This document shows, one piece after another, positions 31,402 to 61,925 of a stretch of DNA of 63,085 nucleotides. The DNA lies in the NCBI GenBank assembly GCA_017617575.1, contig JAFZVY010000050.1, positions 1 to 63,085 of the forward strand, given 5' to 3'. The stretch is from Bacteroidaceae bacterium (GTDB lineage: Bacteria; Bacteroidota; Bacteroidia; Bacteroidales; Bacteroidaceae). Positions within the stretch are counted from its first letter, which is position 1. Each line of letters opens with the position of its first letter. A model generated the notes under the pieces. That model was given only the letters and a program-made list of their open reading frames with translations, did no database searches and was not told the DNA's origin. The position numbers and the translations under genes were made by a program.

Positions 31402-31464
31402 AATCATGCCAAAGTAAACATAAAAGAGCGAGCCAAATACGGCTCGCACAATAATGATAATTAG

Positions 31465-32367
31465 TTATTTTTTTGCCAATAGTTTTATCTGTTGCTTTAC
31501 GTCTCTTTCCTCCAACTGAAGGAAACCCTGCTCGTGGTTGTACTGCTGTCCGTCGCTGAGTACCCACTCAAGGAACTGGTCGATGTCTGTGTCCAAATTT
31601 GCGTATGTGAATCCGATGTGCTCAACTGGGATGGCATCAATATGGTGATGCTCAAGGATGTTGAGTGTTGCATCAAGGTTGTTGAGTGCCTCGCCCTGCT
31701 CCTTCTTCACGTTAAGTGGCAGAACGGAGAAGTTCTTGCGGATGCTGCGTGAAGTGAGGTCGTAGAGGAATGTGAGTGAAGAGAATGTGACTGATGCTGG
31801 CTCTTCCTCAATGGCATTGAGAAGATAGTAGTCATCACCTGCCACCTTGTTGCCCTTAACGTCATCCTTAGTGTGACCGAAGTAAGCTGCGAGGGCTGGC
31901 GTCCAACTTGTGCTGTGGCTACCCGTGAAGACAGTAAGCTTGTCTGCCAACTTCTCCTTCTTGCTCTTGAAGCCGTCAATCTCATCGTCATCAAACTCCT
32001 CATCCACGAAGAAGAGACGCTTCAAGTCCTTGGCAGACCATGTCTTGCGCTCTATGTCCTCCATGAGAGGGTTGGAAGCAGATGTGACAGGGAGCAAGGC
32101 ATATCTACCCACGAAGGTAACGTCCGTACCCTCTGTCTGCACGTTAGTGAGAGTGATGTCAGCATCCTTTGCCTTGCCAGATACTATCTGAATCTGTACG
32201 TCTGGACGAACAGCCTTGTATGCCTCCACCCATTTCTCTACCAAGGCACGTCCTGCCTTGTTAGTCTTAACTGTGATGACTCCATCGTTCTGTGCTGTGA
32301 ATGCTGAAGCAACGACCGTGCTCAATGCAAGTGCTATAGTGAATATTACTTTCTTCATAATTGTCAT
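31465..32367 (-). CDS. PstS-like periplasmic substrate-binding protein
   Basis: An exported solute-binding protein of the PBP-like (phosphate-binding) fold. Its signal peptide is about 1-24 (VVASAFTAQ), followed by a first lobe starting VITVKTNKAGRALVEKWVEAYKA. It has TFVGRYALLPVTSASNP and TGSHSTSWTPALAAYFG, the latter like the ligand loop of phosphate-binding proteins. The length of 300 aa fits. No ABC transporter genes adjoin; the next gene is a DAACS symporter, an unusual partner. The start may be 32367 or the ATG at 32358 (MKKVIFT). Ligand unknown: phosphate is a family guess only. Confidence 0.75.
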   Translation of the reverse strand: MTIMKKVIFTIALALSTVVASAFTAQNDGVITVKTNKAGRALVEKWVEAYKAVRPDVQIQIVSGKAKDADITLTNVQTEGTDVTFVGRYALLPVTSASNPLMEDIERKTWSAKDLKRLFFVDEEFDDDEIDGFKSKKEKLADKLTVFTGSHSTSWTPALAAYFGHTKDDVKGNKVAGDDYYLLNAIEEEPASVTFSSLTFLYDLTSRSIRKNFSVLPLNVKKEQGEALNNLDATLNILEHHHIDAIPVEHIGFTYANLDTDIDQFLEWVLSDGQQYNHEQGFLQLEERDVKQQIKLLAKK

Positions 32368-32385: not shown

Positions 32386-32454
32386 CAAAGGTACGGACTA
32401 TTCTGCACATACGAAATCACTTTGGTATGGTAGATTTATACCATAAATGTGGTA
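32386..32454 (-). promoter_or_regulatory. Promoter with composite operator A (regulon motif)
   Basis: Minus-strand -7 TACCTTTG at 32386-32393. Then, on the + strand, exactly 19 nt, GAAATC (32413), 10 nt, GGTA (32429), 5 nt and ATACCAT (32438). The same arrangement occurs in B, C and D. GGTA and TACC form a dyad here (GGTAGATTTATACC), with a second dyad in CCATAAATGTGG. Confidence 0.85.
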
Positions 32455-32467
32455 GAAGCCACAAGGG

Positions 32468-32566
32468 GAATTCATAATTCATAATTCACAATTCATAATT
32501 GCTATCCAGTACAGATGACACATCTACAATTAATTATGAATCCTGAATTTTGAATTATGAATTACT
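32468..32566. repeat. 7-bp phased AATTCAT repeat with inverted arm
   Basis: AATTCAT, AATTCAC and AATTCAT 7-mers run from 32469 to about 32500. After a 30-nt spacer, TTATGAA and TTTTGAA units run back from 32529 to 32564. It lies between operator A and the end of the TonB receptor gene. Confidence 0.75.
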
Positions 32567-34637
32567 AAAGTCCCACGCTTACATTCACATAGACGTTGCG
32601 ACCTTTCTGGGGAATGTTGCACCAGTCAGAGTAGGTGGAGTAGCGACGGTCAAGGAGGTTCTCCACTCCTGCACGAAGGGTAAGGTGTGCGTTGTTGAGC
32701 GAGAACGTATATTGTGTATTGAGGTTAACGATGGCGTATTCTGCCGTCTCCGTCTCACCATACTTAGGTGCGTAATTCACCTGACGGGCATTGCCATTAA
32801 CCTCTGCCCTTACCTGAAACCTGCTCCAAGCGAAGTCGAGGCTTGTGGCATAAGCCAGAGGGGAGATGAGAGGCAGTGGGTCGCTGTCGGCATCACGTCC
32901 TATGGCATAGTTGACCTTGCCCGTCCATGAGAGCCAAGGAAGAACATGATACTGGGCTGTGAAACTGGTGTTGAAGATTGTGGCATGGTCTATGTTGCCA
33001 TACACCTTGACTCCCTCCGCACCGACGGTCATGGCACTCAGGCGGTTTTCAAACTGACCGATGATGTAGTTGTAAAAGAAGAATGCGTTGGCATCAACAT
33101 TGAACGAAAGGAGTGAAGATGGTTGCCACTTGACAGCTGCATTCACCTCAATGGCACTCTCGTTCTTCAGACGTGGATTGCCTATATAGTCATATTGGTC
33201 AAAGGTATTGTTGAGATAATAGCCGTATGCCTCCGTGACTGTAGGTGCACGGCTACCCCAACCAGCACCGAGGTTCAGGGTGTATTCCTTGACACGTGCC
33301 TCATAGTTGGCAGCCACACGTCCTATGGTCTGGTAATAGGCATCCTTCATTCCCGGGAAGAACACGCTGAGCGAGTGATAGCCTTCCTCGTCATTCAGCT
33401 TCTGCCATTGTTGTGCCACCTTAGCCGAAAGCTTCACCTTCTGCTGGTGAGGCAAAGACACTACGTCGCTTATTGCCACACCCGTATTGAGCGTTCCCAC
33501 GTCTGGCCAAGTGACCATGTACATAGGGGCTGCGCCACCAGGGTACATCGTCATGTCGGCAAAGAGGCGATTGTAGTAAAGGTCGTAGTTCAGTTGCACA
33601 TCGTGACTACCCTTAGAGGCAGAGAGAAGGCTATAGATACCGCTTGTCCAACTCTTACCAGGCATATCCATGTGTATCTCTACGTCAGGACGAGTAGTGT
33701 CATCCATGATATGGACTATGTGGTTGTAATACACCTTTGTCTCCCACGTATTGAGGACTGGATGATGAAAAAGTCGCTTGTACGAAAGAGAGGTGATAAA
33801 TGCCTCCGCCTTGCTCACATCCATGTTGAGGGCAGGATAACCCACGTCACTTGCACGGTCATAGATGAACGTACCTTCCAATATATGGTCTTCTGCCAAG
33901 CGAGCACCAAGATTGGCAAAGGCATTCAGTTTCTGAAACTGCGAGAAGTTGACTTCCTCGCCTCCACCTTGCTTGTAGTTGTCGGCATGACGATAGAACA
34001 CGCCACCATTGGCATAGAAGCTATGCGAAGAGTATGCAGCATCTGCCCCATACACTTGCAGGTGTCCGTTAGCCTCGTAACCCGTGGTGAAATTAGGAAT
34101 GAGGAATGAGGAATGAGGAATGTGAAATGAGGAATGAGGAATGGAATGACTGTTCGCGGAAAGAGTATCAATTCCTAATTCCTCATTTCTAATTCCTAAT
34201 TCCATAAATCCCGCTTTCTTTAGTTTGAGGTCAAGGCTACCGCCTATGTTGCCAGTAGATTGGGGATTGCCGCTCAATCCTGAGTTAAGGCTTATGCTCT
34301 GGAGGTTACCACTCTCCACATACGAAGTGACAGGATCCATCTTATCGGTACAAGCATAGAATATCTTCATTCCGTCGATGGTTGTGGAAACACGTTCCGT
34401 AGCCATGTTATTCACTACAGGCTCCCAAGCATAAGAGCCACGACGTACCAGATTGACGTGTGACAGCTCGCCTATGTGTTCGTCGATGCTTGCCACCTGC
34501 CCCTTGATTGACCTCTTCTGACCCTCCGTCCTGCCAGATATGACCACCACCTCATCAATATTGTGAGTCTTGGTAGCCACCGAGTCGGAAGGAAGTGGCA
34601 ACAAAGGAAGAAAAGAAATATATAGTATGTTGAGCAT
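32565..34637 (-). CDS. TonB-dependent outer membrane receptor
   Basis: An outer membrane active transporter of 690 aa. The N-terminus is a short hydrophobic leader. The plug begins with a TonB-box-like NIDEVVVISGR (26-36), then TTIDGMKIFYACTDKMDP and SGNPQSTGNIGGSLDL. The barrel ends with an aromatic-flanked strand, RNVYVNVSVGL. There is no carboxypeptidase-like N-terminal domain. Residues about 145-183 are low-complexity (NSHSIPHSSFHIPHSSFL) and encoded by a 7-bp repeat element inserted in frame. It is the downstream partner of the His/Met-rich lipoprotein gene at 34899, so a metal or metal complex is the likely cargo. No TAnnTTTG promoter is seen in the gap. Confidence 0.88.
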   Translation of the reverse strand: MLNILYISFLPLLPLPSDSVATKTHNIDEVVVISGRTEGQKRSIKGQVASIDEHIGELSHVNLVRRGSYAWEPVVNNMATERVSTTIDGMKIFYACTDKMDPVTSYVESGNLQSISLNSGLSGNPQSTGNIGGSLDLKLKKAGFMELGIRNEELGIDTLSANSHSIPHSSFHIPHSSFLIPNFTTGYEANGHLQVYGADAAYSSHSFYANGGVFYRHADNYKQGGGEEVNFSQFQKLNAFANLGARLAEDHILEGTFIYDRASDVGYPALNMDVSKAEAFITSLSYKRLFHHPVLNTWETKVYYNHIVHIMDDTTRPDVEIHMDMPGKSWTSGIYSLLSASKGSHDVQLNYDLYYNRLFADMTMYPGGAAPMYMVTWPDVGTLNTGVAISDVVSLPHQQKVKLSAKVAQQWQKLNDEEGYHSLSVFFPGMKDAYYQTIGRVAANYEARVKEYTLNLGAGWGSRAPTVTEAYGYYLNNTFDQYDYIGNPRLKNESAIEVNAAVKWQPSSLLSFNVDANAFFFYNYIIGQFENRLSAMTVGAEGVKVYGNIDHATIFNTSFTAQYHVLPWLSWTGKVNYAIGRDADSDPLPLISPLAYATSLDFAWSRFQVRAEVNGNARQVNYAPKYGETETAEYAIVNLNTQYTFSLNNAHLTLRAGVENLLDRRYSTYSDWCNIPQKGRNVYVNVSVGL
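34089..34205. repeat. 7-bp phased repeat element inside the TonB receptor gene
   Basis: Six or so GGAATGA 7-mers (34096-34143), a 26-nt centre, then complementary TAATTCC / TCATTTC 7-mers (34170-34203). It is the same kind of hairpin element as the intergenic 7-bp arrays, but here 117 bp (a multiple of three) without stop codons, adding about 39 residues to the receptor. Confidence 0.8.
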
Positions 34638-34701
34638 ATCGAATTCAAGTTTTTATGTTATTCTCACTTCACCTTATATCGTTGGTGAACTAATAAAAAA
34701 A

Positions 34702-34811
34702 GGTTTACGGCAGAACAGTTGGGTGGTTTATTACAAAAACAAACATCATGGTTCAATTAAACAACTACATTTAATACCTTTATAACCACCCAACCGTTCT
34801 ACCGCAAAGCC
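34702..34811. repeat. Long imperfect inverted repeat between lipoprotein and TonB receptor genes
   Basis: Arm 34702-34728 (containing CAGTTGGGTGGTT) pairs with arm 34784-34811 (containing AACCACCCAACCG) over about 27 bp with few mismatches; the loop is 55 nt. It lies in the 261-bp gap of a probable operon and could be a processing site, an attenuator or a small mobile element. Confidence 0.75.
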
Positions 34812-34898
34812 AAACAAAACGAATAAACTTCACTATAATGTGTCCATGTATCTAAGCTCTTGCCGAGCCTTCGGTCATGTACCAACCGAACTGCACCA

Positions 34899-35903
34899 TT
34901 ACAGAGTCACATCCCAATAGAGAGAGCTGAAGCCATCCTTCAAGTCGTCGCCACCTGCAACCACGTTGCCCTGTGCGTCCTTAACCGTGAGATGTATTCT
35001 CCACAATCCTGTCATCGTAAGATTGATGACACCCTTGTATGAACCATCACTCTGACGAGTAAGCGTCACGTTGTCTGGTGAAGTATGGTTACCCATGTCA
35101 GGCATACGAGGGTCAATATCCACGGTGAATGTTTCCGTTGCAAGGAAGTAAGGAGTAGTGATAGGGTTGCTCTTCTTAGAGATGTAAGCCCTAATCTCAT
35201 TTGTTCCTGTTGCCCACTCTGAAGGGTTAACCAAAGAGAGGAAGAAAGTGTCGTCACCAATCTTGAAGTTCTTGAGCCAGTCCTGACCGTCAGGAAGTGC
35301 ATCCACGTTTATCTCTACTTTGTTCACTTTACCTGTACTACCGAGAACGGATATGTCGTAAGAGAATTCCCAGAAACCGTTATCGCTCGTGTTCATCAAG
35401 AGAGACACCCAACCGTGCTTAACAGCAATACGAGTATCGTCGAATGTAGTCACGCTACCAGAAATAGGAGTGCTGTGCTGATGACCCATCTTAACCATTG
35501 TCATAAGTGGAGTAATGTTGGTAATGTCATAGTTCTTGACATAGTTACCAGTCAGCTTCTTGGTAACAACGAAATAGACATCGTTATACCCCTTGTGGAA
35601 CGTACCAGTCTTTGTGTAAGCAAAGACGTTGTACTTGCCATCCACCGTGGTTGAAAGCTCTGGCACAATCTTAACCGTCTGGAGGAACTTATACACTTGC
35701 AAAGCCTCCTCAGCAGAACAGCAGTCAACGTCTTCCCTCAAATCTATTCCATCTATCACTATGCCATTCTCATCATCGTTGCTATTACAAGAGACGAGAC
35801 CGAAAGTTGCTACGAATAAAAACAAGCCTACAACAAGGCGAACAATCTTCTCAATCGAAGCATTCAAGATGCTTACCTCATTAACAAATAATACTTTTTC
35901 CAT
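34899..35903 (-). CDS. Lipoprotein with YtkA-like, His/Met-rich segments, probable metal binding
   Basis: A 334-aa exported protein. A longer than usual N-region precedes the hydrophobic stretch, and the lipobox is VSC (Cys39 by my count). Two stretches suggest metal ligands: MVKMGHQHSTPISG and RMPDMGNHTSPDNV, each preceding a beta-rich segment (GFWEFSYDISV, GLWRIHLTVKD) as in YtkA/FixH-type copper-associated domains. The architecture looks like two related beta domains. It is transcribed from operator promoter B and followed by the TonB receptor gene, an arrangement expected of a surface lipoprotein delivering a metal or complex. The metal identity is inference only. Confidence 0.7.
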   Translation of the reverse strand: MEKVLFVNEVSILNASIEKIVRLVVGLFLFVATFGLVSCNSNDDENGIVIDGIDLREDVDCCSAEEALQVYKFLQTVKIVPELSTTVDGKYNVFAYTKTGTFHKGYNDVYFVVTKKLTGNYVKNYDITNITPLMTMVKMGHQHSTPISGSVTTFDDTRIAVKHGWVSLLMNTSDNGFWEFSYDISVLGSTGKVNKVEINVDALPDGQDWLKNFKIGDDTFFLSLVNPSEWATGTNEIRAYISKKSNPITTPYFLATETFTVDIDPRMPDMGNHTSPDNVTLTRQSDGSYKGVINLTMTGLWRIHLTVKDAQGNVVAGGDDLKDGFSSLYWDVTL

Positions 35904-35956
35904 CTCTTAACAAATTTAAGTTAATACTGTTTTCTAATCCTTCTTGATTTCGAGTG

Positions 35957-36024
35957 CAAAGGTACAGCCTTTTCCCCACCCCCGAAATCCCCTTTGTGGG
36001 GTATTCTTATACCATAGATATGGG
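35957..36024 (-). promoter_or_regulatory. Promoter with composite operator B (regulon motif)
   Basis: -7 TACCTTTG at 35957-35964 (minus strand). Then 19 nt, GAAATC (35984), 10 nt, GGTA (36000), 5 nt and ATACCAT (36009). Dyads GGTATTCTTATACC and CCATAGATATGG are clear. Confidence 0.85.
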
Positions 36025-36028
36025 AGAG

Positions 36029-36064
36029 CAATTAACAATTAATAATTCAAAATGCAAAATGCAT
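36029..36064. repeat. Short 7-bp phased AATTAAC/AATTCAA repeat
   Basis: AATTAAC, AATTAAT, AATTCAA, AATGCAA, AATGCAT: five 7-mers in a row just upstream of operator B. Confidence 0.65.
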
Positions 36065-36200
36065 GATTGCCCGATTCACGATAGTCTCATCTTAGTCAGT
36101 ACTTTAGATGCACCTTATATGTCTCTTATGTTTGTAAGGGAAATGTAGCTTCCACCATATCTTTACATTCATTCTCCGTTGTTCCTTCGTTCTTCCTCCC

Positions 36201-36380
36201 ATGATGCTCCTATGATGCTCCTATGATGCTCCATATTTACCCCATCACATCCCCATCGTATCATCACCGAATGTCCATCGAAACGATGGAGATTCGATGG
36301 ACATTCGATGGAGATTCGGTGGACATTCTACGTAGTATCATAGGAGCATCATAGGAGAAACATTGGAGAATCTTTGGAGG
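36201..36380. repeat. Three-block 11-bp phased repeat array
   Basis: ATGATGCTCC at 36201, 36212 and 36223. CGATGGA (or CGGTGGA) at 36284, 36295, 36306 and 36317. ATAGGAG/ATTGGAG/TTTGGAG units at 36340, 36351, 36362 and 36373. All steps are exactly 11 bp. The first and third blocks are complementary (ATGATGCTCCT against AGGAGCATCAT). This fills much of the 674-bp gap between the metal lipoprotein promoter and the SusD gene; the rest (36385-36577) shows only a 20-bp-spaced TTGTGTTA / TTGCGTTA motif at 36522, 36542 and 36562. Confidence 0.9.
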
Positions 36381-36577
36381 AAGAATGAACTATATTTTCA
36401 CACCGTACAGTTCAAACAAAATTGAGGGCTGGCATCTTACTCAGATACCAACCCTCGCATGGATAAAAAACAGAATTTATGTATGTTTACGAACAATTAA
36501 AGTCTATGAACCATGCACGAATTGTGTTAGCCTTTCGAGGATTGCGTTATCCTCTGTAAGGTTGTGTTACCCTTAGA

Positions 36578-38236
36578 TTAATATCCTGGGTTCTGTGCGA
36601 TACCGAGGTTTTCTCCTGTGAGTCCACCTGGTACTGGCTGACGGTAGTGCTTACCGCGTACGTTGTCGTACTTAGCGTGGAGATGCTTGTGTATCTTTGC
36701 AAAGTAAGCTGCCTGATCGTCTGTGTATGTCTGTCCGAGGCTTGTCTGCCAGTCGTCAGCAAAGTGCTTGTATGTAGATACCTTCTTGACAGATGAGATG
36801 AGGTCCTTCCAACGGTATGAGTTGTAAAGTGAGAACTGCTCGTATGTGAACTCATAGTCCCACTCACGCTTGATGTCGTCGAGGGTTGGAGAGCTTACGC
36901 TTGCGATGCCTGCACGTGTGCGAAGCTTGTTGAATGGCTCTGCTGCCTCACTGTTGCGACCCAACTGTACGAGTGCCTCTGCCTTGATGAGGAGTACCTC
37001 GGCGTAGCGAATCTCGATGCGGTCAACGGAGTTCTGAGTAATCTCAAGGTTCACGGAGTTCTCGTAGCTCAAGTCAACTCCCTTACCATTGATTGGAGTA
37101 TAAACTGGTGAGTAATAGTGGTATGTCTTACCATCCACTGGGTTCACGAGTTCTGTGAAGTATGTCTCGGCAAGGCGCTTGTCGTTTGGTTGCTCTGCCT
37201 TCCAGTCGTCGTAGAGATCGTCGTCTGCCACCTCTGTGTGGTTCTCCTTGTAGTCCTTGTCATTCTCACCGTTGAGGAATGGGAATGTCCATGAGCAGTG
37301 TGTCTGGTGGTTACCCTGAGCGTCTGTCTTGTCACCGTCATGTGCGATAGTGAAGAGGTGCTCGTTTGTGCCACGCTTGTTGCTCTCGTATTCACGTCCC
37401 CACAGTTTGTTGTACTCTGGGTCGAGTGCAAGCTTGCCGCTGTTGATGACCTTGTTTGCATACTCTACTGCCTTCTCAAGTCGTGAAGGTGTTGTAGTGA
37501 ACTTTGGGTCAGTCTGTGAGTTAGCTATGGCTGCCACCTCTGACTCTGAGAGTGGGTTGTCACCCCATACGAGGTATGCACGTGCAAGGATTCCCTGTGC
37601 TGCCTGCTTTGATGGCACGCGTGGGTCACCGTTATAGTCCTTGAGGAGTGACTCAGCCTCTGTAAGGTCGCTTACTATCTGAGTGAACACCTCGTCGATT
37701 GACTTACGCTCTGTTGCGCTACCGCCTGCCTCTGTTATCACTGGCACCTCGCCCCAGAGCTGTACAAGCTTCAGGTATGCAAGACCGCGGAGGAACTTAG
37801 CCTTACCTATGGCTGCGTCGTAACCGCTCTGGCTCACCTTGCCAAGTGCGCGTGAGTTGTTGATGGTCTGTATTGCATCGTTTGCCTGTGCCACACCGAG
37901 AAGGAGGTGGTTGAATATCTTGACCTGATACCATGTTGTTGGCTGCTGCTCGAATCGGCTATTTACAGGACCAGGCTGGTCTTCTTCACCCTCGAATGAG
38001 ATGAGCTTGTTTGAGTTAAGCTCGATGATGAATGAGAAGGAAGAGCTAAGTGGCTGCCAGTGGCTATATACTCCATTTACAAGTGAAATGGCTTCTGCAT
38101 CGTTACTTACTACGTTTGTTTCATCAATCTGATTACCATTGTTTGCGTTGTTGTCATCATCGCTTGAGCAGGAAGTGAAACCTGCAAGAAGCGTAGTTGC
38201 TGCAAAGGCAGCGAGGAATAGATTCTTTTTCTTCAT
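36578..38236 (-). CDS. SusD/RagB family nutrient-binding outer membrane lipoprotein
   Basis: The surface lid protein of a SusC/D-type importer. The signal peptide ends in lipobox FTSC (Cys23) followed by an Asp-rich outer membrane export signal (SSDDDNN). SusD family features are the TPR-containing N-terminal half (GKAKFLRGLAYLKLVQLWGEVPVI) and the C-terminal RYAEVLLIKAEALVQLGR and GKHYRQPVP segments. At 552 aa it is full length. Unlike most susD genes it does not directly follow a susC: it has its own promoter (operator C), and the likely susC partner lies 3.5 kb upstream at 41814-44876 with the same operator. Confidence 0.93.
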   Translation of the reverse strand: MKKKNLFLAAFAATTLLAGFTSCSSDDDNNANNGNQIDETNVVSNDAEAISLVNGVYSHWQPLSSSFSFIIELNSNKLISFEGEEDQPGPVNSRFEQQPTTWYQVKIFNHLLLGVAQANDAIQTINNSRALGKVSQSGYDAAIGKAKFLRGLAYLKLVQLWGEVPVITEAGGSATERKSIDEVFTQIVSDLTEAESLLKDYNGDPRVPSKQAAQGILARAYLVWGDNPLSESEVAAIANSQTDPKFTTTPSRLEKAVEYANKVINSGKLALDPEYNKLWGREYESNKRGTNEHLFTIAHDGDKTDAQGNHQTHCSWTFPFLNGENDKDYKENHTEVADDDLYDDWKAEQPNDKRLAETYFTELVNPVDGKTYHYYSPVYTPINGKGVDLSYENSVNLEITQNSVDRIEIRYAEVLLIKAEALVQLGRNSEAAEPFNKLRTRAGIASVSSPTLDDIKREWDYEFTYEQFSLYNSYRWKDLISSVKKVSTYKHFADDWQTSLGQTYTDDQAAYFAKIHKHLHAKYDNVRGKHYRQPVPGGLTGENLGIAQNPGY

Positions 38237-38323
38237 AATTCGTTCCCTTTCTTTTATTAGATGTGATTACCTTTTAATGATGTCGTGTTAAATTTATGTT
38301 TATGTATCATTTGATTTCGAGTG

Positions 38324-38390
38324 CAAAGGTACGGGCTTTTCAGCACCCGTGAAATCCCTATGATTTGGTATATTGATACCATGTTTGTGT
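38324..38390 (-). promoter_or_regulatory. Promoter with composite operator C (regulon motif)
   Basis: -7 TACCTTTG at 38324-38331. Then 19 nt, GAAATC (38351), 10 nt, GGTA (38367), 5 nt and ATACCAT (38376). First dyad GGTATATTGATACC; the second dyad is weaker here. Confidence 0.85.
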
Positions 38391-38543
38391 GATAATGGAT
38401 TACGCGCTGTTTGACGAAGCATCCAAACCTGACAGCCTTCATCTATTATTTTACAATGAGTTAAACCACCGTTTCATTCATAAATATAAATACCAATCTT
38501 TGCAAAAAAGTATTTGATATTTTGTAGTTAAATACATTATTCG

Positions 38544-38551
38544 TACATTTG
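38544..38551 (+). promoter_or_regulatory. -7 promoter element of the nucleotidyltransferase gene
   Basis: TACATTTG, 24 nt before the ATG at 38576. It overlaps the TTG that would extend the frame, which supports the ATG start. Confidence 0.6.
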
Positions 38552-38575
38552 CCACGTAAACAAACGATTAATGAA

Positions 38576-38896
38576 ATGAATAAGTACAATGAAGTCATAG
38601 ACAATATCCGTAAGGTCGCAAAACAGACTTTGCCACCAAAGGGACATGTGTACTTGTATGGTTCAAGAGCAAGAGGAGATGCCAACAAGGATTCTGACTG
38701 GGATCTTCTGGTGATACTTGACAAGTCACGAATCGAACAAGACGACTATGACAATGTGACTTATCCACTAACAGCACTTGGCTGGACTATGGGTGAAATG
38801 ATAATACCTGTTATTTACACAAAAAAGGAATGGGACGACAATTCTTTCACTCCTTTTTATAAGAATGTTGAACAAGACGGAATACTATTAGTTTGA
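38576..38896 (+). CDS. Nucleotidyltransferase domain protein (MNT type)
   Basis: A minimal nucleotidyltransferase of about 106 aa with the GSRARGDANKDSDWDLLV signature (G-S then D-x-D), which transfers a nucleotide to a protein or small molecule. Such proteins usually pair with a HEPN-domain toxin and act as the AMPylating antitoxin. No HEPN gene is seen on either side; the next 600 bp are repeats, so it is a solo or orphaned copy. Codon use is AT-rich, like the other accessory genes here. Confidence 0.85.
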   Translation: MNKYNEVIDNIRKVAKQTLPPKGHVYLYGSRARGDANKDSDWDLLVILDKSRIEQDDYDNVTYPLTALGWTMGEMIIPVIYTKKEWDDNSFTPFYKNVEQDGILLV

Positions 38897-38989
38897 TATT
38901 ACTCCTATATTACCACTTGCAAAGACATTCCTTGAAAAAACTAAAGAAATTCTGAAGGAAGAACTATGACCTTCTGAAGTCTGCCAGCA

Positions 38990-39065
38990 GATATATATCT
39001 GAATTACTTAGGATATATATCTTACGCTCGTCTGATATATATCCTAATGCTGTCAGATATATATC
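38990..39065. repeat. 22-bp phased palindrome array GATATATATC
   Basis: The 10-bp palindrome GATATATATC starts at 38990, 39012, 39034 and 39056: exactly 22 bp apart, with unrelated 12-bp spacers. Confidence 0.9.
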
Positions 39066-39136
39066 TTTTTCAATATAAATATTATAGTTGATTTTCAGAT
39101 ATTTCTAATCCACACTTACTTTATTCGTTTATCACC

Positions 39137-39168
39137 TGTTTAACGTCTGTTAAACGTTTGTTAAACGC
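39137..39168. repeat. 11-bp phased TGTTTAACG/TGTTAAACG repeat
   Basis: TGTTTAACG, TGTTAAACG and TGTTAAACG start at 39137, 39148 and 39159, each 11 bp apart. Confidence 0.8.
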
Positions 39169-39495
39169 CATGAATTGCATCACGTGTGCAGACAAAAAGA
39201 TGTCTATCCAGCGTGGATTTTCCGTTTGTTCCACATGTATTCTGTAAATACCTAAGCGGTACAGTCATACCACGGCGTGATTTCAAGAATTGTCGCACGT
39301 CGATCATAGAATTATCATGCTTGATGTAAAGAATTGTTCCGCAATAACGAAATAAATGTTCATTGTCTTCACGGATTTTATCCCGCTTATTCCTTTGCGT
39401 GTAAATAAAAATGTGTAACTTTGGCGCAAGATTACATTCACACAATAGTTTTATGCTATTCATAAAAGTATAAACCACTAATTTATAAGAAAACT

Positions 39496-40032
39496 ATGAA
39501 AAAATTATTATTGTTATTTGCCTTAGCCATATCAAATGTGGTTAACGCTCAGATCTTTAATGTAAAGTTTGGCGACGAATATAATGTTGCCAATCCTGCC
39601 GTTACGATCTTAATAGGAATGCCTTCGAAGGAAACAAAAAGCACTGTAAAAATTGAACAAGTCTTTAAGAATGTTACAGTGTATGGAAGCAAATTCAAAA
39701 TTGCAGAAATCCAATATACAGGAACTGGAAAAGATGGTAAATTATATTTGGACAATGCTTTTTTTTCAAATGAATTTTATTTATACAGTGATGCTGTTTC
39801 GTTCATCGATAAAATTAGCAAAGTATTATTAAATAAATTTGGAGAACATAAAATACAGTCTGTACCTGAAGGATATTCTTTTTGGGTAAACTATGGAAAG
39901 TCTCCTAGTTTTGACGGAAATGAACCTTTGTGTTCATTATCAATGCAAAGAATAGATGGAGTGTACTATGTATTGTTGAATTTCGGACCATTTTACATGG
40001 CACATTGGCTTGAACAACAAAAGAACAAATAA
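39496..40032 (+). CDS. Hypothetical exported protein
   Basis: I do not recognise this 178-aa protein. It has a clean signal peptide (MKKLLLLFALAISNVVNAQ, cleavage after residue 18). The mature part is beta-rich with aromatic residues (FSNEFYLYSDAV, YSFWVNYG, LNFGPFYMAHW). There is no lipobox. Codon use is AT-rich compared with the conserved genes. It lies between a lone nucleotidyltransferase and a GIY-YIG protein, 41 bp before the latter, so it may be part of the same acquired segment. Confidence 0.75.
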   Translation: MKKLLLLFALAISNVVNAQIFNVKFGDEYNVANPAVTILIGMPSKETKSTVKIEQVFKNVTVYGSKFKIAEIQYTGTGKDGKLYLDNAFFSNEFYLYSDAVSFIDKISKVLLNKFGEHKIQSVPEGYSFWVNYGKSPSFDGNEPLCSLSMQRIDGVYYVLLNFGPFYMAHWLEQQKNK

Positions 40033-40073
40033 AATTCAATTCGCAATATATGCTTCTTTCTTTTTGAAAAAAC

Positions 40074-40904
40074 ATGAGCAGAACTATAACAACATTCTTA
40101 ATAGATGGCGTTCCTGAGGGAAACCGATATGCATTCATAAGCAATAGAATATGCCGAATGTATGTAGTTTATCGTTCCAATCTTGACATACTAAGCAAAC
40201 GCCAAGATTTGCAAACTCCTGCATTCTATGTTTTGCTTGGAGAAGATGAAAAAACCAATCCGATGGCTTACATTGGAGAAACAGAGAACTTTCGAGAAAG
40301 GGTAAAAGACCACGACAGCAAGAAAACTTTTTGGCAAAAAGCATTGGTATTTGTGGCAAAAGATTCAACAACGACAAAAGCCGACGTACAATATTTGGAA
40401 TATCTTGCAATACCAGAGGCAAGAAAAGCAAACAATTACGTTTTAGCAGAGAACAAGCAAACGCCAAAAGAACCAAATCTTCCAGAGCATAGGAAAAGTG
40501 ACATGGACGATTTCTTTGAGGATGTGAAACTTCTCACTTCATTTTCTGGCTGTAATCTTTTTGACGTGACGGATGTTAACAAAGAACACATTTTTTACGT
40601 CAAAGGTCGTGGATGTGAGGCTCGTGGTTTCTATAGCAGCAAAGGCTTTACAGTTCTAAAAGATAGCATAATTGCCAAATCATCAGTTCCATCTTTAACA
40701 TGGAAAGATGGACGTGAAAGCCTTCTTAAAGAATGTACGAGAGACAATGGCGACAAACTTATATTAAATACAGACAAAACTTTTCCAACTCCAAGTACAG
40801 CTGCAAATTTCTGTCTTGGTAGTAACAATAATGGCTGGCTGGCATGGAAAGATAAAGACGGACAACCATTGGATGATGTTTATAGAAGACCTGTAGAAAA
40901 ATGA
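40074..40904 (+). CDS. GIY-YIG nuclease family protein with DUF4357 domain
   Basis: A 276-aa cytoplasmic protein. The GIY-YIG-like core is about residues 48-130 (PAFYVLLG, then MAYIGETENFRERVKDHD), with a catalytic-type Arg following. The C-terminal DUF4357 region (about 180-270) starts near KGRGCEARGFYSSKGF and contains NNGWLAWKD. Such proteins are annotated as nucleases and turn up in phage-defence and mobile contexts; the actual substrate is not established. AT-rich, with no obvious operon partner. Confidence 0.82.
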   Translation: MSRTITTFLIDGVPEGNRYAFISNRICRMYVVYRSNLDILSKRQDLQTPAFYVLLGEDEKTNPMAYIGETENFRERVKDHDSKKTFWQKALVFVAKDSTTTKADVQYLEYLAIPEARKANNYVLAENKQTPKEPNLPEHRKSDMDDFFEDVKLLTSFSGCNLFDVTDVNKEHIFYVKGRGCEARGFYSSKGFTVLKDSIIAKSSVPSLTWKDGRESLLKECTRDNGDKLILNTDKTFPTPSTAANFCLGSNNNGWLAWKDKDGQPLDDVYRRPVEK

Positions 40905-40990
40905 TATTAGACTTGGAGGCATGTTTTTCAGTTGCGCAACTATAAAGCAAAAGTTCTCGACTTTCAACATGAAGTCGAGAACTTTTTGTT

Positions 40991-41044
40991 TCATACGTAT
41001 CAACGATGTCATTCATACGTATCATCTGACTCATTCATACGTAT
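40991..41044. repeat. 22-bp phased TCATACGTAT repeat
   Basis: TCATACGTAT starts at 40991, 41013 and 41035, exactly 22 bp apart. ATACGTAT is a perfect palindrome. It lies in the convergent gap between the GIY-YIG and PIN genes. Confidence 0.9.
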
Positions 41045-41064
41045 GACGCACTAAAACAGTAATA

Positions 41065-41478
41065 CTAACTCTTGTGCGATAATATGTCAAGTAACTCGGA
41101 ATATTTCAGAATCGGTATTCCTTCATGCTGTTTTAAGTCGGTAAGGTCACGGTCGCCACTGACAATGTAATCGACAGGAACACTTTCTGCCATTGAAAGA
41201 AGGTAAAGGTCTTTTGGATCACGAATGTCAGATTTTGCATCAACGGTTATTTCCGTAAACAAGCAGATATCATAGATCATTTCGAAGAAGTAGTAACGGG
41301 TTTCATTAGAAATGAGTTTGTCAAACTTCTTACGTGCTATGACTCCTTTGATTTCGTCTATTAGCTGTTCGCAGACATATATCTGAATGTCATTTCGACA
41401 CAAAACATCAGCAAGTGACGAAAGTCGCTTGCCAATCATGAATGAAATCCATAGATTTGTGTCAAATAAAACTTTCAT
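41065..41478 (-). CDS. PIN-domain toxin of a toxin-antitoxin pair
   Basis: A 137-aa ribonuclease-type toxin. PIN acidic residues are seen in LFDTNLW (Asp6), in IRDPKDLYLL and in VSGDRDL near the C-terminus. It belongs to the group annotated as putative PIN-family toxin (PIN_3). Its ATG overlaps the stop of the antitoxin gene (ATGA), the usual arrangement for translational coupling with antitoxin first. Confidence 0.88.
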   Translation of the reverse strand: MKVLFDTNLWISFMIGKRLSSLADVLCRNDIQIYVCEQLIDEIKGVIARKKFDKLISNETRYYFFEMIYDICLFTEITVDAKSDIRDPKDLYLLSMAESVPVDYIVSGDRDLTDLKQHEGIPILKYSELLDILSHKS

Positions 41479-41666
41479 AGCCCATTCCTGTATGCATTGA
41501 TTTCAGCCTGAATCTCTTCGTCTGTCATCTGTGATGTAGATTGGCATGAATTGATGAATCGCTCAACTGATGTTTGACGACGACGCATAGTCCAACCCAT
41601 GCGCTGAGCAAGTGTCTCAATGAGAGCGGCATCCTGTGTAGGAATTGATAGTACGAGTTCCTCCAT
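41475..41666 (-). CDS. Antitoxin of the PIN toxin pair
   Basis: A 63-aa protein just upstream of the PIN toxin, overlapping it by four bases. It is rich in charged residues with a basic centre (RRRQTSVERF) and a C-terminal acidic helix (DEEIQAEINAYR), as in small antitoxins whose tail wraps the toxin. No DNA-binding fold is assigned with certainty. Confidence 0.8.
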   Translation of the reverse strand: MEELVLSIPTQDAALIETLAQRMGWTMRRRQTSVERFINSCQSTSQMTDEEIQAEINAYRNGL

Positions 41667-41768
41667 AATTCTATATTTTTGATTGTTACGTTGGCAAAGA
41701 TAAGCATAATACTGCTAATACGAATAACAATTCTCAAAAATTATACATTTGAATATAATTATCAGCAC

Positions 41769-41803
41769 ACTGCTGTCCAAAGAAATTTTCTTTGGACAGC
41801 AGT
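41769..41803 (-). terminator. Perfect 16-bp hairpin after the SusC gene
   Basis: CTGCTGTCCAAAGAAA and TTTCTTTGGACAGCAG form a perfect stem with almost no loop, 11 nt past the susC stop. It lacks a T tract, so it may stabilise the 3' end rather than terminate. Confidence 0.75.
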
Positions 41804-41813
41804 GAATTATAAG

Positions 41814-44800
41814 CTATAATGTGAGGTTGACACCGAATGTGAAGGTGCGTGCTGATGGATAGGCTCCGCTGTCCGTTCCACTGCTCACTTCTGGGTCGTA
41901 TCCCTTGTAAGGTGAGATGGTGAAGAGGTTGGAAGCCGTAGCATATACCCTAACACCGAATGGTACTGTCTTTGGAAGACGTGGACGGTAGCCGATGGTC
42001 AGGTTGCGCAACTTGAGGTATGATGCCGACTGTACGTAGCGGTCGTCAATGTATGAAGTAAGGCGTGTGTATGTGGCACGTGGAAGGACGTTGTTGCCAT
42101 TCTCAGGTGTCCAGCTGTCGAGCACCGTAGTGAGGACATTGTATGCGTCGCCTGTCTGCTCAAGTCGTCGTGCGAGTGCATTGTAAACCTTGCTGCCATG
42201 ACTACCTGCAAACGTGAGGGAGAAGTCGAAGTCGTAAAACTGCAACTGTGTGCCAAAGCCGTAGGTGAAGTCAGGCTGTATGCTACCGAGTACCACACGG
42301 TCGGACTCGTCAATCTTTTCGTCGCCATTCGTGTCAACATACTTCACATCGCCTGGCTTTGGTGTCTGACCAGCCACAATAGGAAGCTTGCTAACGTCCT
42401 CATCGCTCTGCACGATACCGTCAAACTTAAATCCGAAGAAAGAACCGAGTGCAGCACCCTTGCGGAGCACAATCTGCTCGTCCGAGCCTTGCACAATCTT
42501 CTCTGTACTGCCGATATTGGTTACCTCATTCTTGTTGTGCGCTATGTTGGCAGAAGCCGTCCATGTGATGCGACGACGCTTGAGAAGCGTTCCGTTGACT
42601 GCAAACTCTATACCCTTGTTGGTCACGTTACCCACGTTCTCATATCGCTTTGTCACACCTGTGAGGAAGGCAATTGGACCCAATGGAGCCTCAAGCAGAA
42701 GGTCGGAAGTCTTCTTGTAATAAGCATCAAGCACAAAGCCGAGACGGTTTTGGAAGAGTCCTAAGTCAACACCCACATTGTAGGATGTAGTAACCTCCCA
42801 CTTCAAGTCTTCATTGGCAGTAGTCTTCTTGGAGTAAGACGATGAACCAGCGTACGAACCTGTGGCATAGGCTGTCATATAGACATATTCACCTATGTTC
42901 TGATTACCAATCTGACCACCAGTGAGACGAAGCTTCAGGTAGTCAATGTTGTTTGCACCAACAAGGAAAGGTTCCTTGTCAATGTTCCATGAGAGACCGA
43001 GTGAAGGGAATGTTTCCCATTGATGCTTCACGGCCACATGAGAAGACTTGTCGGCACGGAACGTAGCTGTGGCATTATATCTGTTGAGCAGGGTGTAGTT
43101 CACACGTGCTATGATACTGTTCAATTCATATTCCGTCTTTCCTGATTTAGGAGTATATATATTGGCTGCATCACCGAGGTTGTTGTGCTTCAAGGACTCG
43201 TTGGTGAAGTGGTCACCCATGATGTTATTGAAGGAAGACGTAGCAGTCTCCTTTGTGTAGCCCACCATTGCATCCACATGGTGGTTATCGTTTATATCCT
43301 TATTATATGTAAGCGTGTATTCCTGTTGCCAAGCGTCTGTCTGTCGATTGCCAATACCTCCGATACCCTCATTGGCAAGACCAAGCGACGTATATTTGCC
43401 AGAGAAGTAGTTCTGCGTAACCTTCTCGCTGTTGAGACCAACGGCTGCCTTGAACGTGAAGTCGCCAATCTTGTACGTAGTCCAGATGTTGGACAGTAAG
43501 TAGTTGTTGATGTTCTCAGCCACACTCTCCATCATGTCATACACAGGATTGGCAGCGTGGTCGCCAATGGCAAAGTAAGCATACTCGTATGGATTTCTGA
43601 AGTTGTACGACCCGTCAGCATTATACACAGAAACGACTGGAGGTATAAGCAATGCATACACAAAGCTGTTGGTAATGCCTGCAGAGAAAGGCGATGAGTT
43701 GAACACCTTCTCCTGCGTAGTGGTGAGACCCTCCTGCTTGCTCCTTCCGTATGTAGTGTTGAAGCCGAACTTGAGTCCCTTTTGCAACTCCCACTCCACG
43801 TTGGCATGGAAGTTGTAACGCTGAAATCCGGAATTGAGGATGATACCATCCTGGTCGGTGTAATTGGCAGAGAAGGCATAGCGGCTCTTGTCAGTACCAC
43901 CATTGATGGACAACTCATGAGACTGCTGCACGGCTGTACGCAACATAGCATCCTGCCAGTCGGTACCCTCGCCAAGGGCATCTATCTGCTCGTCCGTGTA
44001 GCTATCCTTGTTATTGAAATATTTCTTATGGAAACGTGCCCACTCAGAAGCGTTGAGCAGGTCAAGCTTCTTGGTAATAGTGCTTGCTCCAATGCTGTAG
44101 CCATAGCTGATGTGCGCCTTCTTGTCGCCCTGTGCACCCTTCTTGGTAGTAATCATCACAACACCGTTTGCACCACGTGAGCCATAGATGGCAGTTGCAC
44201 TCACATCCTTCAGCACCTCGATGCTCTCAATGTCATTAGGATTGATGGTAGCCAATGGATTGAGCGAACTCTCGATGGCACCAAGGGTGTTACCAGTCAT
44301 CGAAGCATCCCTGAAGTAGATGAAGCCATCCACCACGTACAAAGGCTCATTACTTGCATTCACGGAGTTACCTCCACGTATGCGAATGCTACTCTCCGCA
44401 CCAGGCTGACCGCTTGCAACCGTGACGTTAAGACCAGCCACCTGTCCGCTCAGCGCACCATCAAGTGTGGCAGACGTGCTATTCTCAAACACGTCGGACT
44501 TGACAGACACAACCGAACCCGTCAACTGTGTACGGCTCTGCGTGCCATAGCCCACCACCACAACGTCATTAAGGAGGCTACGCTTCTCAGTAAGCTTAAC
44601 CTCTATATCTTCCTCATCATCATAAACCGTAACGTCCTGCTTCCTGTAGCCCGTGAACGTGATACTCAGCTTGACTGGCAACTTATCCACAGGGATGGAG
44701 AACTCACCATCGTAGTTGGTCACCACGCCCTTGGCATCACCATACTTAACCGTTGCACCTATGATGGTCTCACCCGTTGCAGCATCCTTTACTACACCCG

Positions 44801-44876
44801 TTATTGTCTGCCCGACTGCCGTCAGGAATGATATGGCACTCAATGCCACCGTTGTAATCAATCTGTTTTTTTCCAT
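41814..44876 (-). CDS. SusC/RagA family TonB-linked outer membrane transporter
   Basis: The barrel half of a SusC/D importer, 1020 aa. Signal peptide about 1-22 (SFLTAVGQ). A carboxypeptidase-like regulatory domain follows (ITGVVKDAATGETIIGATV, about 24-90), then the VVVGYGTQSR plug entry and SIRIRGGNSVNASNEPLYVVDG. The barrel ends with ARTFTFGVNLTL. The usual downstream susD is missing; instead a toxin-antitoxin pair follows, and susD is 3.5 kb away with its own copy of the operator. The promoter carries operator D and faces the orphan response regulator gene. Cargo is unknown. Confidence 0.94.
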   Translation of the reverse strand: MEKNRLITTVALSAISFLTAVGQTITGVVKDAATGETIIGATVKYGDAKGVVTNYDGEFSIPVDKLPVKLSITFTGYRKQDVTVYDDEEDIEVKLTEKRSLLNDVVVVGYGTQSRTQLTGSVVSVKSDVFENSTSATLDGALSGQVAGLNVTVASGQPGAESSIRIRGGNSVNASNEPLYVVDGFIYFRDASMTGNTLGAIESSLNPLATINPNDIESIEVLKDVSATAIYGSRGANGVVMITTKKGAQGDKKAHISYGYSIGASTITKKLDLLNASEWARFHKKYFNNKDSYTDEQIDALGEGTDWQDAMLRTAVQQSHELSINGGTDKSRYAFSANYTDQDGIILNSGFQRYNFHANVEWELQKGLKFGFNTTYGRSKQEGLTTTQEKVFNSSPFSAGITNSFVYALLIPPVVSVYNADGSYNFRNPYEYAYFAIGDHAANPVYDMMESVAENINNYLLSNIWTTYKIGDFTFKAAVGLNSEKVTQNYFSGKYTSLGLANEGIGGIGNRQTDAWQQEYTLTYNKDINDNHHVDAMVGYTKETATSSFNNIMGDHFTNESLKHNNLGDAANIYTPKSGKTEYELNSIIARVNYTLLNRYNATATFRADKSSHVAVKHQWETFPSLGLSWNIDKEPFLVGANNIDYLKLRLTGGQIGNQNIGEYVYMTAYATGSYAGSSSYSKKTTANEDLKWEVTTSYNVGVDLGLFQNRLGFVLDAYYKKTSDLLLEAPLGPIAFLTGVTKRYENVGNVTNKGIEFAVNGTLLKRRRITWTASANIAHNKNEVTNIGSTEKIVQGSDEQIVLRKGAALGSFFGFKFDGIVQSDEDVSKLPIVAGQTPKPGDVKYVDTNGDEKIDESDRVVLGSIQPDFTYGFGTQLQFYDFDFSLTFAGSHGSKVYNALARRLEQTGDAYNVLTTVLDSWTPENGNNVLPRATYTRLTSYIDDRYVQSASYLKLRNLTIGYRPRLPKTVPFGVRVYATASNLFTISPYKGYDPEVSSGTDSGAYPSARTFTFGVNLTL

Positions 44877-44936
44877 TGCTTCGTATTTTATTTTGTTATC
44901 TTTTAATTACTTCCCTTCGAGTGAGACCGCTTCGCT

Positions 44937-45027
44937 TAACTCTTAACTCTTAATTCTTAACTCCAAATTCCCCCTCCCTTTCATTAGTCACCCTTCCCAT
45001 AGAGGGGGAGGGATGGGGATAGGGTCC
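44937..45027. repeat. 7-bp TTAACTC repeat and GC-rich hairpin
   Basis: TTAACTC, TTAACTC, TTAATTC, TTAACTC run in 7-bp steps (44937-44964). A CCCCCTCCC ... GGGGGAGGG hairpin of the family at 9588 follows (44967-45027). It lies inside the 5' leader region between susC and its -7 element at 45041. Confidence 0.65.
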
Positions 45028-45040
45028 CTAAATTCGTCCG

Positions 45041-45108
45041 CAAAGGTACGGTGTTTTCTTCTTTGCTGAAATCCCTTTTGTAGGGTATATACATACCATA
45101 AATATGGG
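45041..45108 (-). promoter_or_regulatory. Promoter with composite operator D (regulon motif)
   Basis: -7 TACCTTTG at 45041-45048. Then 19 nt, GAAATC (45068), 10 nt, GGTA (45084), 5 nt and ATACCAT (45093). Dyads GGTATATACATACC and CCATAAATATGG. The operator is in the 372-bp divergent gap shared with the response regulator gene, whose -7 is 90 bp away. Confidence 0.88.
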
Positions 45109-45199
45109 ATATAAGGATAATTTACACTATACAACCATACACTATTAGAAAGATTTTCTAAAGATATGTGTTATTATTGTATAAATAATCTAATACCAT

Positions 45200-45207
45200 T
45201 ACCTTTG
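45200..45207 (+). promoter_or_regulatory. -7 promoter element of the response regulator gene
   Basis: TACCTTTG, 42 nt before the ATG at 45249. ATACCAT overlaps just upstream (45194-45200), a half-site of the regulon motif. Confidence 0.65.
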
Positions 45208-47306: not shown

Positions 47307-47333
47307 TAAAACATAAAAATGAGATTACGAACT

Positions 47334-61867: not shown

Positions 61868-61925
61868 CAAAGTTAGGGCAATATTACCTTGCCGTCAATA
61901 CCCAAAACTTGGTATATTTAGGGCA
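61868..61925 (-). promoter_or_regulatory. Promoter of the TonB/M16 operon with motif variant E
   Basis: -7 TAACTTTG at 61868-61875 (minus). On the + strand CAATACCCAAAACTTGGTAT starts at 61896. GGTA (61911) falls exactly where it does in operators A-D, but GAAATC is replaced by TCAATA and the ATACCAT half is absent. It shares CAATACyCAAAA with promoter F. Confidence 0.7.

What the first reader, a model, noticed from the sequence alone, without database searches (positions are those of the whole stretch)
32386..45108. Four promoters share a composite operator with invariant spacing: a local regulon
Upstream of the PstS-like gene, the metal lipoprotein, susD and susC, the + strand reads: -7 element (as CAAAGGTA), exactly 19 nt, GAAATC, exactly 10 nt, GGTA, exactly 5 nt, ATACCAT, then in three of four a second dyad of the form CCATAnATnTGG. 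The elements start at 32386, 35957, 38324 and 45041. The spacers are unrelated in sequence while their lengths never vary, which argues for one bound activator or repressor touching RNA polymerase. GGTAT-N4-ATACC is a clear dyad in three of the four.
Basis: seen in the sequence. Interest (0 to 1): 0.9.

Follow-up and report, generated by a model that had tools for sequence, protein, structure and literature searches.

The report
Twin-dyad operator of a sulfur-linked regulon
Four promoters of a gut-type bacterium carry the same two-part DNA switch at a fixed place next to the polymerase site; relatives carry it in front of cysteine-making genes, so it looks like the control site of a sulfur-supply regulator encoded next door.

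Summary
In detail: four promoters of minus-strand genes (PstS-like, YtkA lipoprotein, SusD, SusC) share CAAAGGTA-19-GAAATC-10-GGTA-5-ATACCAT exactly, and the composite occurs nowhere else in the 3.38 Mb assembly. Comparative data change the parse: the operator is two 16-bp NarL-sized dyads, TACC-N8-GGKA, usually 6 nt apart, the proximal one ending 23 nt before TAnnTTTG. In 80 regulator loci the distance piles up at 23, 45 and 46 nt; altered half-site order or spacing gives almost nothing. The operator tracks the divergent LuxR/NarL-type regulator at 45249: strong sites in 30 of 32 genus genomes with it, 0 of 13 without. At order level, perfect dyads of regulator-positive genomes are promoter-coupled in 15 of 24 cases and beside sulfur-linked genes in 13 of 24; without the regulator, 0 of 23 for both. 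Best reading: a position-dependent activator of sulfur acquisition, working like NarL at E. coli yeaR/ogt. Shown: sites, spacing, co-occurrence, gene context. Inferred: binding, activation, signal. No report appeared in the open-paper listings seen.

The parts
32386..32454 (-). Operator-promoter of the PstS-like gene: -7 box 32386-32393, -33 TTTC 32413-32416, proximal dyad 32417-32432, upstream dyad 32439-32454 (TACCACATTTATGGTA)
   Evidence: 55.9 bits, E 1.1e-14
35957..36025 (-). Operator-promoter of the YtkA-type lipoprotein gene: -7 35957-35964, -33 35984-35987, proximal dyad 35988-36003, upstream dyad 36010-36025
   Evidence: 67.1 bits, E 3.4e-18
38324..38392 (-). Operator-promoter of susD: -7 38324-38331, -33 38351-38354, proximal dyad 38355-38370, weak upstream dyad 38377-38392
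   Evidence: 55.9 bits, E 1.1e-14
45041..45109 (-). Operator-promoter of susC: -7 45041-45048, -33 45068-45071, proximal dyad 45072-45087, upstream dyad 45094-45109
   Evidence: 58.4 bits, E 1.8e-15
45249..45905 (+). LuxR/NarL-type response regulator, proposed operator-binding protein
   Evidence: GerE domain; profile matches full-length VraR, RcsB and NarL chains; relatives in 80 fetched loci, the best 80 of 154
31465..32367 (-). PstS-like secreted protein, first gene behind the 32386 operator
   Evidence: no Pfam or NCBIfam hit; orthologues carry the operator; only a non-significant partial match to a phosphate-binding protein (E 0.13)
30175..31449 (-). SDF-family (dicarboxylate/amino-acid) symporter directly behind the PstS-like gene, probably same transcript (inference)
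   Evidence: PF00375; beside PstS-like also in L027
34899..35903 (-). YtkA-domain lipoprotein behind the 35957 operator
   Evidence: PF13115
32565..34637 (-). TonB-dependent receptor downstream of the lipoprotein, no operator of its own found
   Evidence: sub-threshold beta-barrel hit; similarity to copper/heme receptors below the curated cut-offs
36578..38236 (-). SusD-family lipoprotein behind the 38324 operator
   Evidence: PF07980, PF14322
41814..44876 (-). SusC/RagA-family TonB-linked receptor behind the 45041 operator
   Evidence: TIGR04056, 834.5 bits
45983..47152 (+). Cys/Met-metabolism PLP enzyme (O-acetylhomoserine sulfhydrylase-like) following the regulator; no operator found in front of it
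   Evidence: PF01053, best NCBIfam TIGR01326 below its cut-off
47319..48497 (+). PatB-family C-S lyase
   Evidence: TIGR04350, 444.7 bits, above cut-off
61868..61914 (-). Ambiguous fifth candidate: single dyad TACCAAGTTTTGGGTA 23 nt before TAACTTTG, ahead of TonB receptor 59041-61845; may belong to a look-alike box type instead
   Evidence: (E 0.0155)

Best explanation
Each of the four promoters carries an operator of two 16-bp inverted repeats, TACC-N8-GGKA in consensus, 22 bp centre to centre. The promoter-proximal repeat abuts the Bacteroidota -33 element (TTTC instead of TTTG) and ends exactly 23 nt before the -7 box. The most likely ligand is the NarL/LuxR-type regulator encoded divergently at 45249-45905, one dimer per repeat. 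Placed where NarL sits at the E. coli yeaR and ogt promoters, it most likely activates transcription by contacting RNA polymerase when sulfur (cysteine) is short, raising expression of an outer-membrane uptake set (SusC, SusD, lipoprotein, PstS-like protein, probably the SDF symporter and second TonB receptor). In relatives the same kind of operator stands before a second cysteine synthase gene, OAHS-like genes and the regulator gene itself. Shown: sequence, spacing, conservation, co-occurrence with the regulator, gene context. Inferred: binding, activation rather than repression, the signal, and the imported compound.
For: Spacing: in 80 regulator loci TACC-N8-GGKA lies 23 nt (56 cases, 42 loci), 45 nt (38, 24 loci) or 46 nt (9, 7 loci) before TAnnTTTGC, with 11 of 114 cases elsewhere; swapped half-sites give 3 scattered cases, and N6, N7, N9, N10 spacers give 0, 0, 5, 0. 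Genus co-occurrence: operator at E<=1e-6 in 30 of 32 regulator genomes, 0 of 13 others (Fisher 1.4e-9). Order: perfect dyad in 14 of 33 against 23 of 359 (Fisher 8.8e-8); the reversed-pattern control, counted by hand, is in 3 of 33 against 67 of 359. Of those dyads, 15 of 24 are promoter-coupled and 13 of 24 beside sulfur-linked genes with the regulator, against 0 of 23 and 0 of 23 without, where 18 of 23 lie inside an ORF over 200 aa. Paralogue control: 17 of 20 regulator-linked-type cysK genes have a full-length site, 0 of 40 other cysK genes. Neighbourhood of 80 regulator loci: CysK 41, OAHS-like 36, PatB 22; CysD, CysN, CysH and CysG-type genes in L066. Reading helix nearly invariant in 30 orthologues. 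Precedent: a NarL 7-2-7 site abutting -35 activates yeaR and ogt (PMC7419079, abstract and passages).
Against: No binding or expression data. Only four composite sites in the own assembly, none before a sulfur enzyme: no site was found before the OAHS-like and PatB genes, the regulator's own -7 near 45200 has no registered dyad, and no close CysK is in the assembly (best 28% identity; 86% complete). Two perfect single dyads of the own genome (contigs C75, C83) are not promoter-coupled. The single-dyad pattern with one mismatch gives 8 own-genome matches against 5 for the reversed control. 19 of 33 regulator-positive order genomes lack a perfect dyad. 16 of 80 regulator loci show none of twelve query genes above my thresholds. 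Inner dyad bases show no pairing beyond shuffles (upstream 0.408 against mean 0.505). Co-occurrence was not corrected for relatedness. The E<=1e-6 limit was chosen after seeing the scores; at E<=0.01 the counts are 32 of 32 against 4 of 13, under stricter search filters that lose weak matches. Model R1 was trained on sites from many of the same genomes. Some of the 13 sulfur-linked cases rest on 31-34% identity. No kinase among the nine other proteins scanned beside the regulator.
Confidence: 0.72

Rival explanations
1. Same regulator and regulon, but a repressor: the proximal dyad touches -33 and blocks RNA polymerase until sulfur runs short.
For: The dyad's last base is next to the -33 element, which would also suit steric exclusion.
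Against: A blocking repressor needs no exact register, yet 23 nt recurs across many genera; the second dyad lies 22-23 bp further up, and only 3 of 114 dyads lie nearer to the -7 box than 23 nt. The -33 reads TTTC rather than the consensus TTTG (column 42: C 27, T 8, G 3 of 38; consensus from a PMC7366714 passage), as expected of an activator-dependent promoter (inference).
Confidence: 0.2
2. The operator is bound by another factor, such as a metal regulator (Fur/DtxR type or a CdhR-type LuxR protein), and the targets are metal uptake genes.
For: A YtkA lipoprotein and a TonB receptor with weak copper/heme-receptor similarity are among the targets. A look-alike box, TACCWA-N4-TWGGTATTG, stands before FeoAB-like genes (L202 confirmed as feoB, the others by eye) and before a hemerythrin-LuxR operon; its 23-nt register was fixed by the search pattern.
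Against: The two boxes differ at the sixth base (A against C/T). Of 47 TACCAYA-type dyads examined in 37 order genomes, the promoter-coupled ones all lie in genomes with the 45249 orthologue (15 of 24 against 0 of 23), and where a downstream gene was recognised it was cysK, OAHS-like, PstS-like, SusC/SDF-like or the regulator rather than feoAB.
Confidence: 0.1
3. A conserved core-promoter variant of the genus with no dedicated regulator.
For: Spacer and -7 surroundings are also partly conserved.
Against: Among 24 TAnnTTTGC occurrences listed in the window, by eye only the four sites, the ambiguous 61868 site and an imperfect copy at 62604 have a dyad. Housekeeping-type cysK promoters of the genus lack it, 0 of 40. 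Only four composite copies in the assembly.
Confidence: 0.03
4. Copies of one recently duplicated promoter cassette that look alike by descent rather than by selection.
For: Four neighbouring genes share the site.
Against: The same positions are kept, while intervening bases diverge, at several gene types (PstS-like, SusD, SusC, YtkA, cysK, OAHS-like) in many genomes, and at single-dyad promoters of distant genera.
Confidence: 0.02

Closest known systems
NarL-activated promoters of E. coli (yeaR-yoaG, single 7-2-7 site; ogt, tandem 7-2-7 sites at -44.5 and -77.5)
   Same: 16-bp inverted repeats (7-2-7), one abutting the upstream promoter element and, at ogt, a second further up, read by a NarL-type regulator
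   Different: Bacteroidota -33/-7 promoter; repeats mostly 22 bp apart instead of 33; sulfur-linked targets; no known kinase; one acidic receiver residue replaced
CdhR (PG1237) / BT_0519-0520 hemerythrin-linked LuxR regulators of Bacteroidota
   Different: no hemerythrin domain among the ten proteins scanned here; 34% identity to the L197 protein, confined to the DNA-binding region; inner operator bases and targets differ
Sus-type SusC/SusD uptake loci
   Same: SusC/RagA and SusD-family pair
   Different: susC and susD have separate promoters with the same operator; the proposed regulator is NarL-type rather than SusR, hybrid two-component or ECF/anti-sigma (those types recalled)
CysB sulfur regulon of enterobacteria (recalled)
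   Same: proposed role: cysteine/sulfur supply
   Different: unrelated regulator family (LysR) and operator

Membership tests
NarL/FixJ (LuxR-type) response regulators | C-terminal GerE helix-turn-helix | tested here: met
   PF00196, E 1.3e-14
NarL/FixJ (LuxR-type) response regulators | N-terminal receiver domain | tested here: met
   profile aligns over positions 2-205 to VraR 5hev (E 7.9e-27) and along most of RcsB and NarL chains; Pfam receiver model not hit at 1e-3
NarL/FixJ (LuxR-type) response regulators | phospho-acceptor Asp and conserved Lys | tested here: met
   D59 and K109 invariant in 30 aligned orthologues
NarL/FixJ (LuxR-type) response regulators | acidic pair at the end of strand 1 (metal binding) | tested here: not met
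   D10 invariant but the next residue is N11 in the window protein and nearly invariant; phosphorylation control is therefore uncertain
NarL/FixJ (LuxR-type) response regulators | partner histidine kinase | tested here: inconclusive
   none among the nine other proteins scanned; rest of genome not searched
NarL-type 7-2-7 operator | 16-bp inverted repeat abutting the upstream promoter element | tested here: met
   site definition from PMC7419079 passages
NarL-type 7-2-7 operator | bound by the regulator | not testable with these tools
   needs gel shift or footprint
CdhR hemerythrin-linked regulators | hemerythrin-domain protein fused to or preceding the regulator | tested here: not met
   no hemerythrin domain in P0001 or the other nine proteins scanned; definition from PMC10434189 passages
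Sulfur-assimilation regulon | sites before cysteine/sulfur genes in several lineages | tested here: met
   cysK and OAHS-like promoters in several loci, PatB in one (L083, one base off register)
Sulfur-assimilation regulon | expression responds to sulfur or cysteine supply | not testable with these tools
   needs transcriptomics

The most novel reading that the evidence does not exclude
This is a sulfur-starvation regulator of many Bacteroidales lineages: an orphan NarL-type protein with a degenerate receiver that senses a sulfur metabolite without a kinase. It drives cysteine synthesis together with an SusC/SusD-PstS-like system that imports an organosulfur compound rather than a glycan, and it belongs to a set of paralogous LuxR-type regulators (sulfur, iron) that use one operator position next to the -33 element.
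Probability: 0.25. Interest if true: 0.85.

Novelty: new member of a known kind. Interest (0 to 1): 0.66.

Why it matters
No regulator of cysteine or sulfur supply in Bacteroidales turned up in the paper listings seen here. The finding gives a regulator, an exact operator and a target list, testable with one gel shift and one deletion strain. It suggests a role for an SusC/SusD pair with no obvious glycan link and for a secreted PstS-like family without Pfam or NCBIfam name. It also gives a positional rule (dyad end 23 nt before TAnnTTTG) for finding such regulons in Bacteroidota.

Tried and rejected
Base-pairing covariation inside the dyads as proof of symmetry: no support. Order-wide scan with the loose pattern TACC-N8-GGTATT-N21-TAnnTTTG (103 of 392 genomes, reversed control 0 in the rows listed): not used as evidence for this regulator, because it mixes box types, one standing before FeoAB-like genes, and because the pattern itself fixes the register. 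Weak model hits such as AATCACATATTTTAGGTATTG before grpE and other genes: treated as a different element. Rfam: no family at gathering score in the window. PstS-like function: no significant solved-structure relative. Structure prediction: machine busy at each of 13 tries, so no model and no fold search. The 19 loci fetched (L160-L178) were not analysed. One of 61 cysK matches (second copy of G039) was left out of the promoter control. The name serine acetyltransferase for L220:234-1130 (one of the gene classes counted as sulfur-linked, though it decided none of the 13 cases) is from recall; Pfam shows only a hexapeptide repeat.
Full report
OBSERVATION. Reading the four regions confirms each element at the stated coordinates. 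The composite pattern with up to 3 mismatches matches 4 places in the window, all exact, against 0 in 100 shuffles, and the same 4 places in the whole assembly of 3,376,139 bases. All four promoters face left: PstS-like 31465-32367 (followed by an SDF symporter), YtkA lipoprotein 34899-35903 (followed by a TonB receptor), SusD 36578-38236, SusC 41814-44876. Divergent from susC is a LuxR-type regulator, 45249-45905, followed by an O-acetylhomoserine sulfhydrylase-like (OAHS-like) enzyme and a PatB C-S lyase.

WHAT THE OPERATOR IS. Relatives of the regulator were fetched with flanks: the best 80 of 154 loci, mostly rumen and gut Bacteroidales metagenome assemblies by their titles, plus Bacteroides reticulotermitis, B. 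neonati, Parabacteroides massiliensis, Phocaeicola barnesiae and Xylanibacter caecicola. On the coding strand the shared arrangement is TACC-N8-GGTA-N6-TACC-N8-GGKA-TTTC-N19-TAnnTTTG, found without gaps and with few mismatches at PstS-like, SusD, SusC and YtkA promoters and also at cysteine synthase genes beside the regulator. In more distant genera a single dyad remains, before cysK in many loci, before the regulator itself in several, before an OAHS-like gene in L047 and, one base off register, before PatB in L083. A distance count over the 80 loci gives 23 nt in 56 cases (42 loci), 45 nt in 38 (24 loci), 46 nt in 9 (7 loci) and 11 elsewhere. Swapped half-sites give 3, and spacers of 6, 7, 9 and 10 give 0, 0, 5 and 0. 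Gaps between two dyads in register are 6 nt (43), 7 nt (5) and 17 nt (1). The 38 aligned sites (A1) were selected by me from the hits, so column conservation in A1 is partly by selection.

REGULATOR LINK. In 45 genus genomes the regulator (E<=1e-40) is in 32. A model of the 38 sites finds a site at E<=1e-6 in 30 of these 32 and in 0 of the other 13. At the search's own limit of 0.01 it is 32 of 32 against 4 of 13. The E<=1e-6 limit was set after seeing the scores, the search used stricter filters that lose weak matches, and many training sites come from these same genomes. In 392 order genomes the perfect dyad TACCAYANNTRTGGTA occurs in 14 of 33 with the regulator (E<=1e-35) and 23 of 359 without (Fisher 8.8e-8); the reversed-pattern control, counted by hand, is in 3 of 33 and 67 of 359. 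I fetched the other 24 dyads of the 14 positive genomes (the window's own left out) and all 23 of the negative ones. Promoter-coupled at 23, 45 or 46 nt: 15 of 24 against 0 of 23. Beside CysK, OAHS-like, PstS-like or the regulator: 13 of 24 against 0 of 23. Inside an ORF over 200 aa: 2 of 24 against 18 of 23. Some of the 13 rest on weak identities (31-34%), and two dyads share one intergenic region. Two perfect dyads of the window's own genome (C75, C83) are among the uncoupled ones. Relatedness of genomes was not corrected.

PARALOGUE CONTROL. Genus genomes carry two kinds of cysK: 20 copies 69-100% identical to the query, 17 of them on the regulator's contig (compare), and 41 copies about 60% identical, present with or without the regulator. 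Of 60 upstream stretches searched (one of the 61 left out), a full-length site (model positions 1-69) stands before 17 of 20 of the first kind and 0 of 40 of the second. Two of the 17 (L280, L281; the 69-70% copies, not on the regulator's contig) sit one base off register. Three of the 20 (L269, L277, L279) have no site.

SULFUR CONTEXT. Within the 80 regulator loci, tblastn finds CysK in 41, OAHS-like in 36, SusC in 25, PstS-like in 24, PatB in 22, SusD in 21 and SDF in 5; 16 have none of twelve query genes above my thresholds, some of those loci being short. In L066 the regulator lies in a cluster with CysD, CysN, an APS/PAPS reductase and CysG/HemC-type genes. The window's own assembly has no close CysK, and no operator was found before its OAHS-like or PatB genes, so the sulfur link for this genome rests on relatives and neighbourhood.

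MECHANISM. Bacteroidota promoters have TTTG near -33 and TAnnTTTG at -7 (PMC7366714, passage; PMC12632263, passage). Here the -33 reads TTTC in most of the 38 sites (C at the last base in 27) and the proximal dyad touches it. With the -7 box at its usual place the dyad centre would lie near -42 (inference). In E. coli a single NarL 7-2-7 site just upstream of -35 suffices at yeaR-yoaG, and tandem sites, one abutting -35, act at ogt through the polymerase alpha C-terminal domain (PMC7419079, abstract and passages). Fixed register plus the second dyad lying upstream argue for activation over blocking. The regulator profile aligns over its full length with VraR and along most of RcsB and NarL; it keeps D10, D59 and K109, lacks the second acidic residue (N11), and has a nearly invariant reading helix (H180, T181, H185, K187, N188, I189, F190, R191, K192 invariant in 30). 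Shown: sites, register, co-occurrence, context. Inferred: binding, activation, sulfur signal, imported compound.

KNOWN OR NEW. CdhR, a known LuxR-type regulator of P. gingivalis, is described as preceded by a hemerythrin protein (PMC10434189, passages). That does not fit this regulator, and similarity to such a protein in L197 is limited to the DNA-binding region. In the listings of eight searches of open-access full text (capped lists, 15 of 18, 8 of 154 and 12 of 20 shown) I saw no paper on a LuxR-type sulfur or cysteine regulator in Bacteroidota. Term searches inside the B. thetaiotaomicron regulatory-network paper (PMC12596196, passages) and the gut amino-acid reconstruction (PMC9026213, 12 of 21 places shown) showed none either. 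Subscription papers are not covered. The kind of mechanism is known; the regulon appears undescribed in what was searched.

Noticed in passing
L194, L202, L208, L209, L210, L212 (box shortly before the gene); L197:1565-2861: A second box, TACCWA-N4-TWGGTATTG-like, stands before FeoA-FeoB-like genes (L202 confirmed as feoB by NCBIfam, the others by eye) and before a hemerythrin-LuxR (CdhR-like) operon; possibly the iron counterpart bound by a CdhR-type regulator. Its 23-nt register was fixed by the search pattern, so it is not independent evidence.
   Followed up: partly
L146, L148, L150, L151, L154, L155, L156, L157 (genus genomes): A recurrent element like AATCACATATTTTAGGTATTG before TAACTTTG/TACCTTTG, once ahead of grpE; a different, unexplained promoter element.
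   Followed up: no
window 61868-61914: Single dyad TACCAAGTTTTGGGTA 23 nt before TAACTTTG, upstream of a TonB receptor (59041-61845) in a group with DUF6850, DUF4876 and M16 peptidase proteins; an imperfect copy also precedes a -7 box at 62604.
   Followed up: partly
L140 (own assembly, contig C152:18772-18818): Single dyad TACCATGAAAATGGTA with -7 in register before an unnamed protein of at least 504 aa without Pfam hits.
   Followed up: partly
L144, L145, L147: Single dyad in register before an AAT-type (acyl-CoA:6-APA acyltransferase family) protein in two genus genomes.
   Followed up: no
window 36187-36390: Long imperfect inverted repeat built of short GATGCTCCTAT-like units between the lipoprotein operator and susD (read by eye).
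   Followed up: no
window 38236-41814: About 3.5 kb with a nucleotidyltransferase gene and other small ORFs separates susC from susD, which lie within a few hundred bases in most relatives tabulated.
   Followed up: no
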